Shown here piece after piece: positions 21,044-36,841 of a stretch of 64,000 nucleotides of DNA. The first letter of the stretch is position 1. The number at the start of each line of letters is the position of its first letter. The stretch is from Methyloceanibacter sp. wino2 (GTDB lineage: Bacteria; Pseudomonadota; Alphaproteobacteria; Rhizobiales; Methyloligellaceae), in contig NZ_CP028960.1 in assembly GCF_003071365.1 (NCBI RefSeq), positions 2,276,501 to 2,340,500 on the forward strand, given 5' to 3'. Made by a program: the position numbers and the translations under genes. The notes under the pieces were generated by a model that was given only the letters and a program-made list of their open reading frames with translations, was not told where the DNA came from and did not search any database.

Positions 21044-21352
21044 ATGACCCATCACTCCAAGTCACTCTCCGGCGTCGCCGTGGCCAGCGCCTTTGCTGCC
21101 GCGCTTGGCATGGCCGCAACCACCACGCCGGCTGCCGCCGAGGATGAGCAAGAGAAATGTTTCGGCGTCGCCAAGGCCGGCGAGAACGACTGTGCCGCGG
21201 GCGCCGGCACGACCTGCGCCGGCACGGCGACGATCGATTATCAGGGGAATGCCTGGAAGCTCGTACCCAAGGGGACTTGCACCACCATGAAACTGCCGGG
21301 CGACCGCGAGGGCAGCCTTACGGCGCTCGAGCGCGACATGCCGCCTGCGTAA
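21044..21352 (+). CDS. bufA1: DUF2282 bufferin-type precursor peptide
   Basis: A 102-residue precursor with a long signal peptide (about residues 1-32, ending TPAAAE) and a core holding four cysteines in the DUF2282 pattern: [13 protein letters not shown], then TTCAG, then KGTC. In the bufferin family these Cys residues are modified by the partner DUF692 enzyme to heterocycles that bind copper, protecting the periplasm from excess metal. The next two genes are the expected DUF692 and DUF2063 partners. A clear AGAAGGA ribosome-binding site precedes the ATG. The gene symbol follows the family name; the copper role is inferred. Confidence 0.88.
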
Positions 21353-21356
21353 GGCG

Positions 21357-22247
21357 ATGGCGCATCCGGCGAATTTTGGCACAAGCCCGATTCCGCGAAA
21401 AGGCGGGGTCGGGCTCAAGCCTGAGCATTATCGCGACATTCTCGACGGCGCTCCCAAGATCGGCTGGTTCGAAATCCACGCCGAGAACTACATGGGCGCG
21501 GGCGGGCCGCCTCATGCCTATTTGACGGCGATCCGGGAGCGCTATCCCCTGTCGCTGCACGGTGTGGGGCTTTCCATTGGCGGCGCGGGGCCGCTCGATG
21601 CGGATCATCTTGCGCGCCTGCGCGCACTTGCCGACCGTTACCAGCCCGCTCTGTTTTCCGAGCATCTGGCTTGGTCCAGCCACGACACGGTCTATCTGAA
21701 CGATCTCCTGCCGTTGCCGTATACGCAGGAAACGCTTGCGCGGGTCTGCGACCACATCGATCAAGTGCAAAACGCCATGAACCGGCAGATGCTGCTCGAG
21801 AACCCGTCCACCTATGTCGCCTATGCCGAGACGACGATGCGCGAGGTCGACTTCCTGCGCGAAGTTGTACGGCGGACCGGCTGCGGGCTCTTGCTCGATG
21901 TGAACAACGTCTTTGTGCAGGCGGCCAATCACGGCTTTAAGCCCGCCGACTATCTCGACATTTTTCCGATGGAGCATGTAGGCGAGATTCATCTCGGCGG
22001 GCACGCGGAGGATGCGGACGAGGACGGTTCGCTTCTGCTCATCGACGATCACGGCCGCGAGGTGGCCGACCCCGTCTGGACGCTTTACGCGCGGGCGCTC
22101 GCGCGCACGGGGCCGGTGCCGACGCTGATCGAATGGGACAACGACGTTCCCGACTGGCCCGTGCTGTTTGCCGAGGCCAAGCGAGCCGATGATCTGCTGG
22201 CGTCGTGCACGGTGTCCGCCGCTCCCGAGCTCGCGGCCGTCACATGA
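21357..22247 (+). CDS. bufB: DUF692 multinuclear iron oxidase, bufferin-modifying enzyme
   Basis: A 296-residue TIM-barrel protein of the MNIO (DUF692) family, related to methanobactin MbnB. Family signatures are present: GLKPEHY near the start, [45 protein letters not shown] and LIEWDND, which together carry the His/Asp/Glu ligands of the iron cluster. It would oxidise cysteines of the DUF2282 precursor encoded four bases upstream. Its stop overlaps the start of the next gene (ATGA), so the two are translationally coupled. Confidence 0.92.
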
Positions 22248-23008
22248 CGACGGACGCGGCCCAGCGCCAGGGAGCCTTTGCGAAGGCGCTTCTGGATCAG
22301 GACGCGGGTGTCCCGGATGCGGTGAAGGGGCGCGACGGCAGCGGCCCCGCGCGGCGCTTTGCAGTCTACCGGAACAATGTTTACGCCAGCCTCATCGACG
22401 CGCTTGCAGGCCGCTTCCCGGCAACGGCGAAGCTCGTGGGAGAAGAGTTCTTCCGGGCGATGGCGCGGGACTACGTGGAGAAGGCGCCACCGCGGTCGGC
22501 CGTTCTGCTGCAGTATGGCGGTGACTTCCCCGATTTCATCGGCGCATTTCCGCCCGCCTCGGCGGTTCCGTATCTCGCCGACGTGGCGCGGCTCGAATGG
22601 GCCTGGCACCAGGCCTATCACGCCGCCGATGCCGAGCCGTTGTCGCAAGAGGCGCTGACGGCGCTCGGTGAACGCGCCGAGGATATCGGCTTCGTGTTCC
22701 ATCCCTCGGCGAGTGTCGTCCGATCCGAATATCCGGTGATCACCATCTGGGAGCTCACGCTGCGGGACGGCGAAGACGAACCGGGACGCCTGCCTGCCGG
22801 CGGGGAGGATGCGCTCGTGCTGCGTCCCGCGCTTCAAGTGACTGTTCGCCGATTGCCGGCTGGAGGCGCAGCCTTCGCCGAGGCGCTCATGGCGGGGGAG
22901 AAGTTACCAGCTGCGGCAGGCATCGCGTCGGACCTGGAACCAGCTTTCGACCTTGCGGCCAACCTCGGGGGCCTCATGCGAAGCGGCGCATTTGTCGGAA
23001 CGCGGTAA
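22244..23008 (+). CDS. bufC: DUF2063 partner protein of the DUF692 enzyme
   Basis: A 254-residue protein of the DUF2063 family (labelled putative DNA-binding in databases, but in RiPP operons the likely peptide-recognition partner, like MbnC). The N-terminus shows family features: [37 protein letters not shown] and [14 protein letters not shown], then [15 protein letters not shown] and [21 protein letters not shown] chose ATG 22244, which overlaps the bufB stop by four bases. A terminator-like hairpin lies 95 bases downstream, and no DoxX-type fourth gene follows. Confidence 0.88.
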
Positions 23009-27646: not shown

Positions 27647-27721
<75 letters not shown>

Positions 27722-27812
27722 TTCCAAGCGACTTGAATGTACCCGGGGTCCGGGACCTAACGAATCGCCTTTTGGGGCAGGCTCCCGCGTGCGAACGGGC
27801 TCGCCTTGGGGC

Positions 27813-28348: not shown

Positions 28349-29671
28349 GTGCGAACGGATCATGACGTTGCGGTGATTGGTGCGGGTCCGATCGGATGTG
28401 CCGCGGCGATCGCGTTTGCCCAGCGCGGGGAGACCGTCCTGCTGCTCGAGGCCAATCCGCGCGCCGCTGAGCGGTTCGCGGGCGAGTGGATTCACCCGTC
28501 CGGTGTCAAGATCCTCGAGAAGCTTGGATTGGGCGGCCTTGCGGCGTTTACGGAGAACGGCCCGCGGCGGGGTTTCGTCGCCCATCCCGGCGACGGCGCC
28601 GACCCGATCGTCTTGTCCTATCCGGACGGCATGACGGGCGTCAGCTTCGAGCATCACAAGCTCGTCGACGAGCTGCGCCGCCGGGCCGTCTCAATGCCCG
28701 AGATCGACTATGTCGCGCCGGCGAAGCTGAGCAAGCTCGAGCCGGTGCCGGTCTATATGGATGGAGATACGGGCGCCGAGGTCGCGATCAACGCGAAGCG
28801 GATCGTGGCGGCCGATGGGCGCCGGTCGGGAACGCGCCGTCTTCTCGGTCTGCCTGACGGCTCGGTCGGTATCTCCTTCATGGCCGGCATTGTCCTCGCC
28901 GACGTGGAACTGCCCGTTGAAGGCTACGGCCATGTGTTGAGCGGTCTGGCCGGCCCCATCCTGTCGTACCGGATCGGTGCCGACCAGGTGCGCCTGTGTC
29001 TCGACGTGCCCGCGTCGGCCACGGAGCTGCGGCGAGACACGGATGCCCTCTACGCGGCGGTCGCCCCGGCTCTACCGGCACCGATGGCGAAGGCGCTTGC
29101 TGTCTCCTTGAAGACCCGCAAGCCCGCCTGGATGGAGACGCGGTTCCAGACCCGAACCGCCTACGGGCGCGGCAACGTCGCCTTGGTGGGCGATGCGGTC
29201 GGCTGCACGCATCCGCTTACGGCTGTCGGCATCTCGCTGGGACTGAAGGACGTGGAGGCCCTGCTCGACATTACCGACGCTGCGGACTACGCACGCCGGC
29301 AGAAGGCGCGCGCGCGGGTGCCCGAGATGCTTTCGAACGCGCTCTATCAGGTCTTTTCCGATCCCCGCTACGATGCCCGCGCCATCCGGCAGTCGATGTT
29401 CGATACGTGGCGTACGAGTGCCGCGGAGCGGCGCCGCACGATGGCGCTGCTCGCCGCGACGGACGTGCGCGGGAGCACGTTCGCGACGTCGTTCTTCCGC
29501 ATCGGATTCCGTGCCGCGCGAAAGACCGTCGGCGCGGAAATGCGCGAGGGACACTGGAGCCGGACGCGGCAAACGTTGGCGCGGTTCGCGTCGTGGAGCA
29601 CCTGGCCGATCGCCGGTCTTCTTCCCGGCTACCGGAAGATACCGGCCCATCTCAAGGCCGCGGGACATTGA
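28349..29671 (+). CDS. Squalene monooxygenase (squalene epoxidase)
   Basis: A 440-residue FAD monooxygenase that would convert squalene with O2 to (S)-2,3-oxidosqualene at the membrane. It has the FAD motif VAVIGAGPIGCAAA at the N-terminus, an Arg/Glu region AERFAGEWIHPSGVKILEKLGL in the place where squalene epoxidases have GELLQPGG, the second FAD segment VGDAVGCTHPLTAVGISLGLKDVEALL, and a hydrophobic-basic C-terminus. The GTG at 28349 puts the FAD motif at the usual distance; TTG 28346 is an alternative. Its stop overlaps the start of the oxidosqualene cyclase gene, which fixes the substrate assignment. First gene of the sterol cluster. Confidence 0.85.
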   Translation: MRTDHDVAVIGAGPIGCAAAIAFAQRGETVLLLEANPRAAERFAGEWIHPSGVKILEKLGLGGLAAFTENGPRRGFVAHPGDGADPIVLSYPDGMTGVSFEHHKLVDELRRRAVSMPEIDYVAPAKLSKLEPVPVYMDGDTGAEVAINAKRIVAADGRRSGTRRLLGLPDGSVGISFMAGIVLADVELPVEGYGHVLSGLAGPILSYRIGADQVRLCLDVPASATELRRDTDALYAAVAPALPAPMAKALAVSLKTRKPAWMETRFQTRTAYGRGNVALVGDAVGCTHPLTAVGISLGLKDVEALLDITDAADYARRQKARARVPEMLSNALYQVFSDPRYDARAIRQSMFDTWRTSAAERRRTMALLAATDVRGSTFATSFFRIGFRAARKTVGAEMREGHWSRTRQTLARFASWSTWPIAGLLPGYRKIPAHLKAAGH

Positions 29672-31656
29672 ACCATTGGGCAGCGCAGAAGGACCTGTCG
29701 CAGGCTGTCGATCTGGCGCTGCGGCACGTGCGGGACACGCAGGCGCCTGACGGAAGCTGGCACGGCGACTACGGCGGTCCCGTTTTTCTGCTGCCGACCC
29801 TGATCGTCGCGACGCACATTGTCGGTGCGCCCTTCGATTCCGAGACCGAGCAGGACTTCATTCGCTTCTTCAAGCATCACCAGAACGAAGATGGCGGCTG
29901 GCCGCTCCATATCCAAGGCGAGAGCTACGCCTATGCCACGGCGCTTTGCTACGTGGCTCAGCGGCTGCTGGGAGTGCCGGCGGACGATCCCGATCTGCAG
30001 CGGGGGCGGGCTTGGCTGCTCGAACGCGGAGGTGCAGCCAATCTGCCGCCGTGGGGCAAGTTTCTGCTCGCACTCCTCAATTTGTACGACTACGACGGCG
30101 TCATGCCTGTCCCGCCGGAACTCTGGCTACTCCCGACGTCGCTACCGGCCCATCCGTCCCGCTTCTGGTGCCACAGCCGCATGATCTTCCTGCCCATGAG
30201 TTATCTCTATGGGATCAGGGCGCAGGCGCCGTTGACGCCGGTCGTGCGCGCGTTGCGCGACGAGATCTTCTGCGAGCCCTATGAAGCGTTGGACTTCCGC
30301 GCCAGCCAGATGCAGTGCGCGCCCGATGATATCTACGCGCCGCTGTCGCGGGGCTACCGGTTCCTGAACGGTCTTCTGAACGGCTACGAATCCATTGCCG
30401 GCAAGAGCTTGCGTGCCCGCGCGACCGCGTTCGTGTTGGATCAAGTGCGCCGGGAGGACGAGAACACGAACAACATCTGCATCGGGCCCATCAACAAGGT
30501 GCTCAACATGCTGTGCTGGCACTATGCCGAACCTGACGGAGAACGCGTCGCCGCGCATCGGCGGCAGTTGCCTGAGTATCTGTGGAAGGGCGAGCACGGC
30601 ACGCATATGCAGGGCTACAATTCCTCGCGGCTTTGGGACACGGCGTTCGCCGTCCAGGCGATTGCCGCGTCCGGCCGTGCAGGAAAAGCAAAGCCGATGT
30701 TGGAGTCGGCCCACGCCTATATCGAAGCCAACCAGGTGCTCGAAGACACGCCGGAGCGGGAGCGCTATTTCCGCGACCCCTCCAAAGGCGGTTGGCCGTT
30801 CTCGAACAGGAAGCACGGCTGGCCGATTTCGGACTGCACCGCGGAGGGTTTGAAAAGCGCGATCGCGTTGCGCGCCGTTGTCGACGAGCCCATTTCCGAC
30901 GAGCGTCTCGACGACGCGGCCGAACTGATCCTCGGTTGGCAGAACGCCGACGGCGGCTGGCCAACTTACGAGAAGGCGCGGACGCCGGCCTGGATGGAGG
31001 CCCTTAATCCGTCGCTCGTGTTCGCCGACATCATGGTGGACCACTCTTATGTGGAATGCACATCGGCCTGCGTCCAGGCGCTGATCCGCTATCGTGCGCA
31101 GGGCGTCGATCCGGCGCGGGTCCGGCGCATCGACAAGGCGATCGAGGGCGGCCGCGATTTTCTGTTGGCTCGGCAACGCGCCGACGGCGCCTGGATGGGC
31201 GCCTGGGGTATCTGCTTCACCTACGGGACTTGGTTCGCGGTCTCGGCCCTCCGGGCCGCTGGGCTTTCCGCCGACAGCGCCCCCGTTCGCCGCGCGGCTG
31301 CGTTTCTCGTCTCCCATCAACTTCCCGATGGCGGCTGGGGCGAAACCATCGAGAGCTGCCGGCGCGGGACCTATGCGAGCACCCCGGAGGGCCAGGTGGT
31401 GATGACGTCCTGGGCCGTGCTCAGCCTGCTTCAGAGCGACATGGCCGACAGCGAGCCGGTACGTGCCGGGCTGCGCTTCCTGCAGGACCGGCAACGCGCG
31501 GATGGCAGCTGGCCCGAGGAAACCATCGCCGGCGTGTTCAACCGGACCTGCGCGATCACCTACGACAATTACCGCAAGATTTTCGGACTGTGGGCGCTGG
31601 CGGCGGCGGAGGCGGGCCTCGACGCGGATGCAGATGTCCAAGGATTGGCGCAATGA
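29668..31656 (+). CDS. Oxidosqualene cyclase, predicted cycloartenol synthase
   Basis: A 662-residue triterpene cyclase with QW repeats (DGSWHGDYGG, DGGWPLHIQG, DGGWPTYEKA, DGAWMGAWG, DGGWGETIES, DGSWPEETIAG). The catalytic motif is DCTAE (Asp389-Glu393), the oxidosqualene cyclase form; the DXDD motif of squalene-hopene cyclases is absent. VECTSA and GVFNRTCAITY also follow the eukaryotic-type pattern. Residues matching Arabidopsis CAS1 Tyr410, His477 and Ile481 are Tyr317 (MQGYN), His383 and Ile387 (HGWPISD), the combination of cycloartenol synthases, not lanosterol synthases. It starts with TTG, overlapping the epoxidase stop by four bases, and its own stop overlaps the next start. Confidence 0.93.
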   Translation: MNHWAAQKDLSQAVDLALRHVRDTQAPDGSWHGDYGGPVFLLPTLIVATHIVGAPFDSETEQDFIRFFKHHQNEDGGWPLHIQGESYAYATALCYVAQRLLGVPADDPDLQRGRAWLLERGGAANLPPWGKFLLALLNLYDYDGVMPVPPELWLLPTSLPAHPSRFWCHSRMIFLPMSYLYGIRAQAPLTPVVRALRDEIFCEPYEALDFRASQMQCAPDDIYAPLSRGYRFLNGLLNGYESIAGKSLRARATAFVLDQVRREDENTNNICIGPINKVLNMLCWHYAEPDGERVAAHRRQLPEYLWKGEHGTHMQGYNSSRLWDTAFAVQAIAASGRAGKAKPMLESAHAYIEANQVLEDTPERERYFRDPSKGGWPFSNRKHGWPISDCTAEGLKSAIALRAVVDEPISDERLDDAAELILGWQNADGGWPTYEKARTPAWMEALNPSLVFADIMVDHSYVECTSACVQALIRYRAQGVDPARVRRIDKAIEGGRDFLLARQRADGAWMGAWGICFTYGTWFAVSALRAAGLSADSAPVRRAAAFLVSHQLPDGGWGETIESCRRGTYASTPEGQVVMTSWAVLSLLQSDMADSEPVRAGLRFLQDRQRADGSWPEETIAGVFNRTCAITYDNYRKIFGLWALAAAEAGLDADADVQGLAQ

Positions 31657-33952
31657 CGGCGGGGTTCGGCCTCGAAAAGCTGGGACTGCTGGCGCAGCGT
31701 TTCCCGCGGATCACCCTGCTGATCATCGCAGCACTGACCATTCCGCTGGCGTTTGCCGCGGCGAAAGTCGAGTTCTCCAGCGACATTCGTGAGATTTTCC
31801 GCTCCGGGACGGAGGACTTCCGCAATCTCCAAATGGTGGAGAAGCAGTACCCGCAGACCGGCGAGGACGTGCTGTTGCTGGTGCAGGCGCCGGATCTCTT
31901 CAGCCGCGAAAATCTCGAACACTTACGCGATCTGCATCTGAACCTCCATTTCGTCGAGGGCGTGAAGCACGTCACGTCGATGTTCTCGGCCCACGACGCG
32001 CCGGATGCCTCCGGCAATGCTGAGGCCGTGTTCCCGATGGAACTCGAGGGTGTGGATATTCCCGGCTTGCGCGACACCATGCTGGCGCACCCCTTTGTCT
32101 CAGAAAAACTCTTGTCGGCGGACGCCACGACCGCGCTGTTCGTCGTCGCGATCGAGCCGCGGCCGAAGATCGACGATCTTCGCGTCGTCGCGGATGATTT
32201 GCGGCAGGTGACGGACGAAGCGCTGGCGGGCACGGACATGCAAGCCGAACTCAGCGGCGTGGCGTTCTTCCGGCTCGAGATCGTCGGCGCCTTGATCCGC
32301 GATCAGCGCCTCCTGATCGGGGCGGGCTTCACAGTATCGCTGATCATCTGCCTGCTGTTCTTCCGCAGCCCTATTTACGCCCTGCTTGCCGGTGTGCCGG
32401 CGGGGATTGCGGTGCTGTGGACCTTAGGGATCACAGAGTTGCGCGGGCAGGAGATCACCGTCCTCACCGGCGTGGTGCCGGGGCTGGTCACGGTGCTGGT
32501 GTTCGCAAGCTCGCTGCATCTGATGTTCGGCATCAAGCGCAAAGTGGTCGCGGGGGAGGGCGCGCGCGAGGCGGTCGTGTCGTCGGTGCGGGACATCGGC
32601 CCCGCTTGCGTGCTCGCGGCCATGACGACCGCGATCGCGCTGCTGTCGCTCACGCTCGTGCCTCACACGCTTGTGTCCGGGTTCGGACTCACAGCTGCCA
32701 TCGGCACGGCTGTCGCCTTTCTGGCGACGATCACGGTTCTGCCGGCGCTGGGGACGCTGCTGCTGGGGCGGCGTGGCCGAAAGGAAAACGCGGACCACAC
32801 CCTCGACCGCATCTTCACCGCCACGAGCACTGCCTGCCGGCGGCTGGGCCGCGCCATCCTCGGCAATCCCACGGCTTTTCTTGCCGCCGGGCTCATCGTC
32901 GCGATCGGTGCCGGCATTCTCTACGCCACGATCAGCCCAAGCTATCAGTATAGGGACTATCTGCCGGCGAACAGTCAGTCCTCACGGGTCATGGACGTGG
33001 TCGACAAGGAGTTCGGCGGCACCGAGGCTATCCTCCTCCATATCCAATGGCCGAAAGACAAGCCGCTCGATTCTGCCGAGGTCCTCACCGTGGTCGGGGA
33101 CGCGCACAAGACCCTGGAGACGCTGCCGCTCGTGACGCGCGCGGTGTCCCTGCACAGCATCGAGACCTGGATGCTGGAGGGCGGGCTCAAGCAGGCGCAA
33201 GTCTTGGACTTCCTGGAGGAGTCCAAGTCGCCTTTCCTCGAGCGCATGATGTCGGTGGACGATCATTCGGCGCTCGTGTCCGGCTACTTCCCCGCGGTGG
33301 ACGCCTCCGAGTTGGTGCCCGTGCTGGACGCGCTCGAAACGGACATCGAAGCCCTGCGCGCGGCGCATCCGGGTGTGCGTTTCATCGCGACCGGAATCGC
33401 GCCCCATTCCGCCCGGGCGAGTTACGACATGATCATCGAGCTCAACCGCAGCCTGTTGATCGCAATCGGGCTCAACATTCTGCTGATCGGCCTGGTCTTC
33501 TGGTCGTTGAGAGCCGGGCTCTACAGCATGGTGACCAACGTTCTGCCGATCGCCGTGGCGGGCGCGATCCTCCATCTTACGGGCGCAGGACTGCAATTCA
33601 CCTGCGTGGTTGCCTTCACCATCGGGTTTGGCATCGCGGTGGACAATGCTATTCACATCCTGAACTACTATCGTTTGATGCGGTCCAACGGCGAAGCTGT
33701 AAAGCCGGCCCTCGAGGAGACGATCGCCACCATCGGCCCGGCGCTCGCCGTCGGGTGTCTGGTGCTGATCGTCGGGTTCGGGGCACAATACTCAGCGAGC
33801 TTCCCAGCCTGCGTCTGTTTGGAGAAGTCGTGATAATGCTCTTGGCAACGGCGCTGCTGGCGAACCTTTTGGTGCTGCCGGCGTTGATCGCGTTTGTTGA
33901 AGGGCGGGCCTGGCGGACGGACGTGCCGCGGCCACCGGTCAAAGGCAGCTAG
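31653..33952 (+). CDS. RND/MMPL-family lipid transporter (HpnN/BstA-like), frameshifted near the end
   Basis: About 766 residues if intact: an N-terminal membrane helix, a large periplasmic loop, membrane helices at about 220-370, a second helix plus loop, and helices at about 600-765. GFGIAVDNAIHILNYYR is the RND signature in the second half. Frame 31653 stops at 33833 after AQYSASF; the true C-terminus (ILSELPSLRLFGEVVIMLLATALLANLLVLPAL) continues one frame over. Restoring one G in the run 33780-33783 joins them. Overlap with the cyclase gene (ATGA) implies export of its product. HpnN (hopanoids) and BstA (sterols) are the known relatives. Confidence 0.85.
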
Positions 33953-33978
33953 GCAAGGCGCTGCCAGGGAGGATCTCT

Positions 33979-34368
33979 ATGAGAAGCCTGATTTCGCTAT
34001 GCGCCGTCCTGTTCGTGGCGATGATCTCGCCGCTTCAGGCGGAACCACTAGCGCTTGAAGGGACGTGGAACGGCAGCGGCACGATGCAGGCCATGGACAA
34101 CCCGCCCCAAAAGCTGACCTGCCGCATCAAGTACAAGCGCGAGACCGAGAAGGTGTTCAAACTCGCCGCGAAATGCGTGACCATCTCGACCGCCATCAAC
34201 CAGACGGGGCAGCTCCTGAAAGTCAATCCAGGGGTGTATGTCGGGGAATTTCACGTCGCGTCCTACGACATCTCCGGACGGGTGCGGGTCGTGATCGACG
34301 GAGACGTCCAAACCATGTCGTTCAAGAGTTCCCGGGCCAATGGGAGCGTTACCCTGACAAAGTCGTGA
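33979..34368 (+). CDS. Small exported protein of the sterol cluster, unknown function
   Basis: A 129-residue protein with a signal peptide (cleavage near LQAEPLA) and an all-beta-looking remainder (LEGTWNGSGTMQ, CRIKYKRETEKVFKLAAKC, YVGEFHVASYDISGRVRVVIDG, MSFKSSRANGSVTLTKS). Two Cys after the signal may form a disulphide. AGGGAGGATCTCT gives a strong ribosome-binding site. It begins 26 bases after the transporter, so it is probably in the same operon. The Gly-Thr-Trp start of the beta part recalls small lipocalin-like or lipid-binding folds, but I do not recognise the family. Confidence 0.75.
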   Translation: MRSLISLCAVLFVAMISPLQAEPLALEGTWNGSGTMQAMDNPPQKLTCRIKYKRETEKVFKLAAKCVTISTAINQTGQLLKVNPGVYVGEFHVASYDISGRVRVVIDGDVQTMSFKSSRANGSVTLTKS

Positions 34369-34629
34369 ACCGGCTGGGTGGCCTGTGTGTTAGGATGAGG
34401 CGGCGTCCGGAAGCTCGTGGCTTTGTGGACGTGATCTGAGGGATTTCAGACCCGCTATCGGCTGCTTCCAGGCGTTTTGCGCGGGCTTTCTGTGCATGAA
34501 ATCGGGCAGCAGCCATAATCGGCCAGGGATTGGCGGCTATGCTGTCGATGGCGCCGCGTGATTCCTCGTTTGGCGCCTAAGACTTAGGGTGGCGATCCTG
34601 GGTCGAGCAGATCGGATGACCGATCTTCT

Positions 34630-35709
34630 GTGTTGCGCGCCAAACGCGCCAAAACTGTGGGGGCTAAGAGCAAGATCGTGTTGGATAGGACCGTCGGCAA
34701 CGAAGAGCTTCCGCTACTGCTGGTGCCCCAGCTGTCGCGCACCTTCGCGCTGACCATTCCAAGGCTGCCGTCCGACCTGCGGTCAACGGTGGGTACGGCC
34801 TACCTGCTGTGCCGCGCCGCGGACACGATCGAGGATTCGCAACTCCCGGATCGCGACAGGAAGATCGCTCAACTCGACATGTTCCTTGCCGGGGTCGACC
34901 GGACGGAGTCTTGGGATGAGGTTTCCAGGCGTCTTGCGGCCGAGCTGTCGGGAGAAATCGGCCCGGAGGAGCTCGAGCTCATCGATAGTTTGCCGGGCCT
35001 GATCGATATCTTGAATACCCGTCCTGTAAGACAGCAGGAGGCGGTCCGCACCTGTCTCAAGAAAATGGCATCGGGCATGAAGTCCTTCGTCAACCGTCCG
35101 ACGGGATTGGCCGACATGGCCGAGCTCGACAACTATTGCTACGTGGTGGCGGGCGTCGTCGGCGAGATGCTCACCGAGCTTTTCTGCGACCATGCCGCGG
35201 ATATCGACGAGCACCGAGAAAAGCTCGAGAAGCTTTCGGCAAGTTTCGGCCAGGGCCTGCAGATGACGAACATTCTGAAGGATATCTGGGACGACCGGCG
35301 GCAAGGGCGCTGCTACCTGCCGCAAAGTCTCTTCTGTTCCGCGAGCCTCGATCTGCGCGATCTCGACGGCGCCGCCCAGGAGCCCGCTTTCCGTCCGACG
35401 ATCCACCGGCTCGCACGGATTGCGTTGGGTCATTTGGGCAATGCCGTCGAGTACACGCTGACGATCCCGCGCCGGCACACCGGCATTCGGCAATTCTGCT
35501 TGCTCGCGATCGGCATGGCCTACGCCACCCTCAATCGGGTCGTGCAGGTGTCGCAGTTCTCCTCGGACTATCGGCCGAAAATCTCACGCTCGACGGTCAA
35601 GAGCGTGATGCTCGCGGCACCGGTGATCTGCCGAAGCGATTCGCTGACGCGCTGGACCATGTCCGGCATGGCGAGTCTTTGCGAGGCCAACGCCATTCGT
35701 CAGCCCTGA
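34630..35709 (+). CDS. Squalene synthase (farnesyl-diphosphate farnesyltransferase)
   Basis: A 359-residue class-I terpene synthase joining two farnesyl diphosphates to squalene with NADPH. Substrate-binding motifs: LSRTFALTIPRLP, first Asp motif DTIED, YCYVVAGVVGEMLTELF and second Asp motif LQMTNILKDIWDDRRQGRCYLP. The single-protein form, unlike the HpnC/HpnD/HpnE route of hopanoid producers, matches squalene synthases of sterol makers. A phytoene synthase cannot be fully excluded but the neighbouring epoxidase and cyclase argue for squalene. GTG 34630 is taken as start; GTG 34678 is possible. Confidence 0.85.
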   Translation: MLRAKRAKTVGAKSKIVLDRTVGNEELPLLLVPQLSRTFALTIPRLPSDLRSTVGTAYLLCRAADTIEDSQLPDRDRKIAQLDMFLAGVDRTESWDEVSRRLAAELSGEIGPEELELIDSLPGLIDILNTRPVRQQEAVRTCLKKMASGMKSFVNRPTGLADMAELDNYCYVVAGVVGEMLTELFCDHAADIDEHREKLEKLSASFGQGLQMTNILKDIWDDRRQGRCYLPQSLFCSASLDLRDLDGAAQEPAFRPTIHRLARIALGHLGNAVEYTLTIPRRHTGIRQFCLLAIGMAYATLNRVVQVSQFSSDYRPKISRSTVKSVMLAAPVICRSDSLTRWTMSGMASLCEANAIRQP

Positions 35710-35782
35710 CGGATCGGAGGCGGCCGCGCCGTCGATGTCTCGGGCCCTTGACAGTGCTAGAGCAAATCAAGAGTTTTGCGCC

Positions 35783-36322
35783 ATGCAGACTTTGGAGAAA
35801 GTCATTCTCGTCGACGATTGCGATCGCGAGATCGGCACCGGCGAGAAGCACGAGGTGCACAGACAGGGCTCTCTGCATCGCGCATTCTCGGTGATCATCT
35901 GGGACGATGCGGACCGGATGCTGCTGCAGCAGCGGAGTTCCGGGAAGTACCATTCCGGCGGTCTTTGGACGAATGCCTGTTGTGGGCACCCGCGCCCGGG
36001 GGAGGCGTGCGATGCGGCGGCGCGGCGCCGGTTGCAGCAGGAAATGGGCTTTGTCTGCCCGTTGGACGGGCTGGGTACGATCCGCTACCGGGCGGAACTC
36101 GACCACGACATGATCGAGCACGAGATTGTCCACGTTTTTCACGGCGTTCATGACGGCGCGATTGTGCCGAACCCAGACGAGGCGCAGGCCTATCGCTGGG
36201 CGGCCGTGGAAGATGTCCAGGCCGATGCGCTGGAAGCGCCCGAGCGATACACCGCCTGGTTCCGCAAATATCTGAAGGCGGAATGGCCCGTCAGGCGCGC
36301 CGTGCCGGAGAATTCCGGCTGA
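35783..36322 (+). CDS. idi: Isopentenyl-diphosphate delta-isomerase, type I
   Basis: A 179-residue Nudix-fold enzyme interconverting isopentenyl and dimethylallyl diphosphate. Characteristic sequences: EVHRQGSLHRAFSVIIWD, WTNACCGHPRPGE with the catalytic Cys, RRRLQQEMGF, and EHEIVHVFHG with metal-binding Glu/His. ATG 35783 is used because the family begins shortly after (ILVDDCDREIG). Located 73 bases after squalene synthase, it completes supply of C5 units for the sterol pathway. Confidence 0.93.
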   Translation: MQTLEKVILVDDCDREIGTGEKHEVHRQGSLHRAFSVIIWDDADRMLLQQRSSGKYHSGGLWTNACCGHPRPGEACDAAARRRLQQEMGFVCPLDGLGTIRYRAELDHDMIEHEIVHVFHGVHDGAIVPNPDEAQAYRWAAVEDVQADALEAPERYTAWFRKYLKAEWPVRRAVPENSG

Positions 36323-36433
36323 GCGGCGCCGTCCGGCATCGGACGGGACCGGCGCTTGAACAGAGTGTCCTTAACCAAGCTCACGGCCTCGTCACTTGAC
36401 GCAAAGGGCGCCCGGGACGAAATTCAGGTGCAT

Positions 36434-36841
36434 ATGGCCAAGCTCAGAACCATCGTTACGGCTCTCATCGTTTGCGCGCTCGCGGTATTGCCGGCGGCAA
36501 GCGCCAGCGCGGCCATGCATATGGCAGGCACAATGGGCTCGGCGGTTTCCGCCGAACATGGCGGGGGCGAGCCGGTTTCGATGCATGGCGACTGCGAGAA
36601 CCATGCGACGATGGCAGCCGCCGAAAAGGATACCGCATCCGCGCCGTCCTCCCGCGATCATGGGCCATGTCACGGCGGCAGTTGCGGCAAATGCCCGTGC
36701 ATGGGGCTTGCCGTGACGGGCGTGCTGGCCATGGGGCCCGCCACGCCGACTTTTGTCTTTACGGCCATCCCCACAGGCTGGGCAACGCCGAGCCTGCAGG
36801 CGCCGTCCATTCGGCTGCCGTCTCCGCCTCCACGCGTCTAA
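36434..36841 (+). CDS. Cys/His/Met-rich exported protein, probable metal binder
   Basis: A 135-residue protein with a signal peptide (to about ASASAAM). The mature part carries many Met, His and Cys (MHMAGTMG, MHGDCENHATM, DHGPCHGGSCGKCPCMG), fitting copper binding, then a hydrophobic stretch and the tail PPPRV. It lies 124 bases upstream of cusB on the same strand. CopL-like or similar Cu-responsive proteins share this layout, but no family is recognised with certainty. A copper chaperone or sensor role is inferred from composition and position. Confidence 0.75.
   Translation: MAKLRTIVTALIVCALAVLPAASASAAMHMAGTMGSAVSAEHGGGEPVSMHGDCENHATMAAAEKDTASAPSSRDHGPCHGGSCGKCPCMGLAVTGVLAMGPATPTFVFTAIPTGWATPSLQAPSIRLPSPPPRV

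What the first reader, a model, noticed from the sequence alone, without database searches (positions are those of the whole stretch)
28349..36322. A compact sterol biosynthesis cluster in an alphaproteobacterium
Six co-oriented genes encode squalene epoxidase, oxidosqualene cyclase, an RND lipid transporter, a small exported protein, squalene synthase and isopentenyl-diphosphate isomerase. The first three overlap by four bases each. De novo sterols are rare in bacteria, and the grouping of precursor supply, cyclisation and export in one cluster is notable. C-14 and C-4 demethylation genes are not in the window, so the end product may be a 4,4,14-trimethyl sterol or be finished elsewhere. Direct observation: motifs and gene order; inference: pathway product.
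Basis: partly seen in the sequence, partly recalled or inferred. Interest (0 to 1): 0.95.

Follow-up and report, generated by a model that had tools for sequence, protein, structure and literature searches.

The report
Sterol cluster with captured lipid exporter
A Methyloceanibacter genome carries a compact set of genes that would make a plant-type sterol (likely cycloartenol, which a close relative is already known to make), side by side with genes for a transporter and a small, predicted barrel-shaped protein that would move the sterol out of the inner membrane.

Summary
The genome is a complete 3.21-Mb Methyloceanibacter. The biosynthetic half is known: M. caenitepidi (92% identical OSC) makes cycloartenol and nothing further (Wei 2016). 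Here the OSC has the full cycloartenol-synthase triad (Y317/H383/I387). No squalene-hopene cyclase, CYP51-like P450 or SdmA-sized Rieske gene was found, so the likely end product is unmodified cycloartenol. New points: (1) The cluster was probably gained once in this genus, beside tRNA-Val; five OSC genomes form a clade whose OSC-free sister has other DNA there. (2) RND plus small protein is a separate two-gene module. It stays next to OSC in 6 of 6 OSC genomes and also occurs as paralogous pairs without OSC, in this genome and in five other families of the order. (3) The small protein is predicted to be an eight-stranded barrel, unlike BstB/BstC. I infer that a pre-existing lipid-export pair was duplicated and captured by a sterol cluster. 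Transport is untested.

The parts
27647..27721 (+). tRNA-Val(gac), left border of the acquired segment
   Evidence: ARAGORN. Homology to the OSC-free sister genome G008 ends at 27724.
28349..29671 (+). squalene epoxidase
   Evidence: PF08491 85 bits; best solved structure is squalene monooxygenase 6c6n, 93.6 bits
29668..31656 (+). oxidosqualene cyclase, predicted cycloartenol synthase
   Evidence: TIGR01787 above cut-off; lanosterol synthase 1w6k 596 bits; DCTAE motif; Y317, H383, I387
31653..33833 (+). RND/MMPL (HAE3-like) transporter, candidate sterol exporter
   Evidence: PF03176 120.8 bits; TIGR00921 164.7 bits (below cut-off 351.9); Sterol-sensing PF12349 24.5 bits, just over its cut-off 22.3, but the 591-kb paralogue scores the same (25.1); overlaps OSC by ATGA
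33979..34368 (+). secreted, predicted eight-stranded beta-barrel protein, candidate periplasmic sterol carrier
   Evidence: AlphaFold2 model mean pLDDT 87.3 (about 95 over the barrel); two invariant cysteines; paired with RND in OSC and non-OSC loci
34630..35709 (+). squalene synthase
   Evidence: PF00494 187.6 bits, TIGR01559 117 bits (below cut-off 286.75)
35783..36322 (+). isopentenyl-diphosphate isomerase (type I, Nudix)
   Evidence: NF002995 and TIGR02150 above cut-off
36380..36517 (+). right border: homology to the OSC-free sister genome resumes here, upstream of the HlyD/AcrB efflux genes
   Evidence: blastn against G008, 73.9% over 138 bases

Best explanation
This is a Methyloceanibacter gene cluster, probably acquired, that likely makes cycloartenol and lies next to a transporter gene and a small-protein gene whose products are predicted to carry the sterol from the inner membrane toward the outer membrane. 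Steps. The squalene synthase and IDI would supply squalene (family match, untested). The epoxidase would make 2,3-oxidosqualene (family match, untested). The OSC would cyclise it to cycloartenol (residue triad here; product measured in M. caenitepidi in print). With no hopene cyclase, CYP51-like P450 or SdmA-sized gene found, cycloartenol would be the end product and the cell's polycyclic triterpenoid. The RND transporter would extract it from the inner membrane and hand it to the small periplasmic barrel (inferred from linkage and predicted fold). The RND-barrel pair looks older than its link to OSC: this genome holds two further paralogous pairs away from OSC. The OSC copy reads as a duplicate recruited into the cluster.
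For: Gene families and overlaps. OSC alignment to lanosterol synthase with Y, H and I at positions 381, 449 and 453 of human numbering (positions 317/383/387; the numbering of the human sequence is recalled). Wei 2016 passages: Y/H/I suggests CAS, I453 matched cycloartenol in the bacteria they tested, and M. caenitepidi made only cycloartenol. OSC is 92% identical to M. caenitepidi. The only PF13243 place in the genome is this OSC. P450s, Rieske and ERG24. An RND orthologue (81-98% by aligned piece) directly follows OSC in 6 of 6 OSC genomes (window included), and the small protein directly follows RND in 6 of 6. Paralogous RND-small pairs: own genome at 591 kb and 802 kb, and OSC-free G008 and G013. 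RND tree: OSC-linked clade 100/100, its sister being the 591-kb type. Barrel model and fold matches, which include ligand-binding barrels. Five OSC genomes form a clade (100/99) with OSC-free G008 as sister.
Confidence: 0.65

Rival explanations
1. The enzymes make cycloartenol, but the RND-barrel pair carries something else (for example a phospholipid or a toxic hydrophobic compound) and its place beside OSC is historical.
For: Paralogous pairs occur without OSC in G008, G013 and other families. One own pair sits beside a patatin-like phospholipase gene and another beside a DegT aminotransferase. The four-base OSC/RND overlap is not kept in G006 and G015.
Against: The linkage survives relocation: G016 has the same block in another context. 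The four-base overlap is kept in 4 of 6 OSC loci, and the linked RNDs form their own clade, found here only in OSC genomes.
Confidence: 0.3
2. The small barrel is a protease-inhibitor-like protein or a minute outer-membrane barrel, not a soluble lipid carrier.
Against: The weak Pfam matches are scattered over 8 families with best E 0.012, none shared by more than 2 of 17 members, and none of the six genes matched a protease family. In 13 of 30 places RND lies directly upstream in the same direction.
Confidence: 0.22
3. The cluster's product is modified further by enzymes elsewhere in the genome (for example a C-4 or C-14 demethylated sterol).
For: Two P450 genes and one PF04116 gene exist; vitamin D hydroxylase and a CYP125 ancestor are among the second P450's 60 best solved relatives.
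Against: None of the 60 best listed solved relatives of either P450 is named CYP51. Only two short Rieske genes. M. caenitepidi made cycloartenol alone.
Confidence: 0.09

Closest known systems
Methyloceanibacter caenitepidi cycloartenol synthesis (Wei et al. 2016, PMC4919349; passages read)
   Same: Same genus.
   Different: The paper reports epoxidase and OSC loci and the lipid. The words RND, transporter and operon do not occur in its text, so the export pair and the site were not treated.
Bst sterol transport system of Methylococcus (Zhai et al. 2024, PMC10942540; passages read)
   Same: RND-superfamily protein encoded beside sterol genes, proposed to move sterols out of the inner membrane.
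   Different: The partners there are a PF12974 periplasmic protein (BstB) and BstC. Here the partner is a 129-aa predicted beta-barrel, and no PF12974 match appeared among the 18 window frames scanned.
HpnN hopanoid transporter
   Same: MMPL/RND membrane protein tied to a polycyclic triterpenoid pathway.
   Different: Scores 67.6 bits against the HpnN cut-off of 751.85; 726 aa against an 862-position model; no hopene cyclase in this genome.
Myxococcota OSCs of the cycloartenol type (Stigmatella, Cystobacter, Corallococcus)
   Same: Bacterial OSCs with the Y/H/I triad; Stigmatella and Cystobacter OSCs 53% identical. In Corallococcus loci an epoxidase and a squalene synthase lie beside OSC.
   Different: No small-protein match in any of the 78 OSC loci outside Methyloceanibacter; 7 of the 78 have a weak RND-like stretch. 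Many of these loci are cut short by contig ends.

Membership tests
Oxidosqualene cyclase, cycloartenol-synthase type | DCTAE catalytic motif instead of the DxDD of squalene-hopene cyclases | tested here: met
   DCTAE at 389 in the window protein; the two hopene-type cyclases of G009 and G002 read DDTAV and DDAAV
Oxidosqualene cyclase, cycloartenol-synthase type | Y381/H449/I453 (human numbering) | tested here: met
   Y317, H383, I387. The meaning of the triad is from Wei 2016 passages.
Oxidosqualene cyclase, cycloartenol-synthase type | curated model cut-off reached | tested here: inconclusive
   Broad TIGR01787: 619.5 of 322.7, met. Narrow TIGR03463: 781.3 of 851, not met, though it is the best match.
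Oxidosqualene cyclase, cycloartenol-synthase type | makes cycloartenol from 2,3-oxidosqualene | not testable with these tools
   In the passages seen, shown for cultures of M. caenitepidi, not for this enzyme
Squalene epoxidase | PF08491 domain above its cut-off | tested here: met
   85 bits, cut-off 20.1; squalene monooxygenase 6c6n is the best solved relative
HpnN hopanoid transporter | NCBIfam HpnN model cut-off reached | tested here: not met
   TIGR03480 67.6 of 751.85 bits; NF052374 34.5 of 1100
HpnN hopanoid transporter | genome makes hopanoids (squalene-hopene cyclase present) | tested here: not met
   Only PF13243 place in the genome is the OSC
Bst sterol transport system | RND/MMPL protein beside sterol genes | tested here: met
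   PF03176 120.8 bits, overlapping OSC
Bst sterol transport system | BstB (PF12974) and BstC encoded alongside | tested here: not met
   No PF12974 among the 18 window frames scanned. The rest of the genome was not searched for it, and BstC was not searched for as such.
Bst sterol transport system | components bind C-4 methylated sterols | not testable with these tools
   Needs binding assay
Lipocalin/FABP-like ligand barrel (fold class) | eight-stranded antiparallel barrel | tested here: met
   Predicted strands 28-38 to 120-128, pLDDT about 95; nitrobindin, FABP and lipocalin among Foldseek matches
Lipocalin/FABP-like ligand barrel (fold class) | belongs to that superfamily rather than to another eight-stranded barrel | tested here: inconclusive
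   Designed barrels, a quinohemoprotein domain, OmpW and OmpA rank high as well; no Pfam family at E below 0.01

The most novel reading that the evidence does not exclude
RND transporter plus a secreted eight-stranded barrel is a previously undescribed two-part lipid-export machine, spread across several families of this alphaproteobacterial order. In Methyloceanibacter one duplicated copy was captured by an incoming sterol cluster and turned into a dedicated cycloartenol exporter, independent of both the HpnN and the Bst systems.
Probability: 0.33. Interest if true: 0.72.

Novelty: new variant of a known kind. Interest (0 to 1): 0.52.

Why it matters
How bacteria sort sterols between membranes is an open question, with only the Methylococcus Bst proteins proposed in the papers I found. 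This cluster offers a second, smaller and separately evolved candidate in relatives that have been cultured (M. caenitepidi, M. methanicus), in cells that appear to have a sterol and no hopanoid. An OSC-free sister genome places the gain within one genus. That makes it a natural experiment on what sterols do in a bacterial membrane.

Tried and rejected
Squalene-hopene cyclase reading of the cyclase: rejected by motif, scores and tree. HpnN identity of the RND: rejected.

A third gene downstream of the paralogous RND-small pairs: the two candidate frames (257 and 299 aa) share no similarity (BLASTP E 0.20), and the gene caller prefers frames on the other strand there.

tRNA-directed integration with flanking repeats: no exact direct repeat longer than a 10-mer between the tRNA region and the right border. 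So I claim only that the border lies at the tRNA, not an integrase mechanism. Integrase genes were not searched for.

RND structure: predicted from one sequence only, mean pLDDT 41.9, useless; not used. I should have given it an alignment.

Strand-face hydrophobicity of the barrel: no consistent hydrophobic interior from alternation alone.

The Y/H/I count of 89 of 97 OSC rows is biased: the collection scan's own pattern, HGWPI[ST]DC, contains the H and I. It is not used as evidence.

RND tree: the grouping of G002's small-paired RND with the Methyloceanibacter pairs has 92/86 support and is not starred. In 6 of 8 other-genus loci checked, an RND of a different branch sits beside the same tRNA-Val; G020 and G021 have none there. 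Descent of the OSC-linked RND from such a resident gene is disfavoured, not excluded.

Absence of ERG24: the control rang nowhere, so it is weak. SdmB, BstB and BstC were not searched in the genome.

Papers: PMC4919349, PMC10942540, PMC12583986, PMC13277303 and PMC7660913 were seen as passages only; others as listings only. 'Not in print' for the RND-barrel pair rests in an open-access library without preprints.
Full report
What is there. The window lies at 2,276,501-2,340,500 of a one-contig 3.21-Mb genome, 99.99% complete. Six co-oriented genes, 28349-36322, encode squalene epoxidase, OSC, an RND/MMPL transporter, a small secreted protein, squalene synthase and IPP isomerase. The first three overlap by four bases each. 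Gaps follow: 145 bases before the small gene and 261 before squalene synthase.

Who it is. The OSC is 92% identical to that of Methyloceanibacter caenitepidi. The genus set contains G006, whose 450,927-base contig matches M. methanicus R-67174, and G004, whose 3,424,964 bases match the M. caenitepidi contig. So this is a Methyloceanibacter.

Product. Against lanosterol synthase 1w6k (596 bits) the protein keeps DCTAE and has Y, H and I at the three product-steering positions. Its best NCBIfam match is the narrow oxidosqualene-cyclase model, below that model's cut-off (781.3 of 851), while the broad squalene/oxidosqualene-cyclase model is passed. Wei et al. 2016 (PMC4919349, passages) state that Y381/H449/I453 suggests cycloartenol synthase. 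They report that I453 went with cycloartenol in the organisms they tested, and that M. caenitepidi made only cycloartenol. In the whole genome, PF13243 occurs only at this OSC, so no hopene cyclase was found. Two P450 genes exist; none of the 60 best-listed solved relatives of either is named CYP51, though vitamin D hydroxylase and a CYP125 ancestor are among those of the second. Only two Rieske genes were found, with frames of 204 and 222 aa, too short for an SdmA-type oxygenase (the SdmA domain type is recalled). One PF04116 gene exists. The predicted end product is therefore cycloartenol itself. A 2025 survey (PMC12583986, passages) lists Methyloceanibacter among genera without shc. In the set searched here one genus member, G009, has a hopene-type cyclase, and G011 has a 30%-identical fragment.

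Distribution and origin. OSC occurs in 6 of 17 genomes of the genus, window included (one partial at a contig edge, one in frameshifted pieces), and as a 62% piece in 1 of 13 genomes of other genera of the family. Genus genomes were 77-100% complete, so some absences may be gaps. A tree of eight flanking proteins from 21 genomes places the five OSC genomes of this genus that had those markers in one clade (100/99), with OSC-free G008 (100% complete) as sister; G015 had no such locus. In G000, G004 and G018 the block starts 0.6-0.8 kb after tRNA-Val(gac). In G006 it stands at the same site behind about 3.3 kb more DNA. In G016 the tRNA-Val flank is without it and it sits in another context. In G008 the same flanks, CpdR and HlyD, enclose 2.2 kb: homology to the window ends at 27724, three bases past the tRNA, and resumes at 36380, with about 1.4 kb between that has no significant match to this window segment. 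The simplest history is one gain in this genus after the split from G008, then one relocation. G002's OSC would be a separate event (two changes on the tree). In the OSC tree the window falls in a clade of 12 rows of Methyloceanibacter and metagenomic proteins (SH-aLRT 100), next to four rows, one of them an uncultured proteobacterium (97), apart from most Myxococcota (quick method; 97 rows).

The transport pair. An RND orthologue (81-98% by aligned piece) follows OSC in 6 of 6 OSC genomes, window included, and the small protein follows RND in 6 of 6. The OSC/RND overlap is four bases in 4 of 6 (ATGA in three, GTGA in G016), one base in G015 and absent in G006. The same two genes also occur as pairs without OSC. 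They lie at 591 kb (RND 55%) and 802 kb (RND 30%) of this chromosome, in OSC-free G008 and G013, and, in opposite orientations, at a second place in G002. The RND tree has the OSC-linked copies as one clade (100/100) whose sister is the 591-kb type, which reads as a duplication. In a sample of 199 genomes of the order, 67 match the small-protein profile. Of the 30 best places examined (one per genome), 14 have an RND within 1.5 kb, 13 of them directly upstream in the same direction; 3 of the 30 are OSC loci. Nine of the 14 lie in five other families. So the pairing is recurrent but not universal.

Reading. The enzymes and the likely product are those of a known sterol producer in the same genus, so the headline of the finding is not new. 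What appears new, within, is that a pre-existing RND-barrel pair has been built into the sterol cluster. It differs from HpnN and from Bst, whose partners are of other families (passages). Of the 78 OSC loci outside Methyloceanibacter, none has a small-protein match, and 7 have a weak RND-like stretch (L041, L053, L054, L059, L065, L101, L106); many of these loci are short. Transport of cycloartenol is the inference I commit to. It is untested.

Limits. The 80 OSC loci were the best of 140 and came from patterns biased to this OSC type. Eukaryotic OSCs were not in the tree. Several genus genomes are fragmented, and OSC or RND genes of G018 and G006 are split by frameshifts, which look like assembly errors. 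A second squalene/phytoene-synthase-family gene exists at 204 kb, and similar single genes are found in many OSC-free genomes.

Noticed in passing
window 21357-23008 (+): MbnB/TglH/ChrH-family gene (PF05114, 372 bits) followed by a DUF2063 gene, with a 102-aa frame just upstream (21044-21352): looks like a RiPP-type operon.
   Followed up: no
P0048 (metagenomic protein): A 1146-aa protein with both squalene epoxidase (PF08491) and cyclase domains: an apparent natural epoxidase-OSC fusion, on a 14-kb contig.
   Followed up: partly
L166, L167, L168, L169, L170, L181 near tRNA-Val: In 6 of 8 other-genus loci of the family an RND of a different branch (44-45% identical) sits next to, or within 2 kb of, the same tRNA-Val, without the small protein; L172 and L173 have none. 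Whether this shared address is coincidence is unexplained.
   Followed up: partly
G002 contigs C61 and C205 (L122, L123): A family member of another genus holds both a hopene-type cyclase and an epoxidase-OSC piece (OSC 62%), so both cyclase types may coexist there; its contamination is given as 5%.
   Followed up: partly
L056, L063, L089 (OSC loci): Methylothermaceae MAGs and a Bradyrhizobiaceae MAG have OSCs reading DCTAL instead of DCTAE, with the Y/H/I triad.
   Followed up: no
own genome 794.5-808.5 kb (L220): Third RND-small pair lies beside a patatin-like phospholipase gene, a hint that such pairs may handle lipids.
   Followed up: partly
L117 (G018) and L115 (G006): OSC (G018) and RND (both) are split by frameshifts in otherwise very similar loci; RND paralogues of these two genomes are split too, so assembly error is likely.
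   Followed up: no
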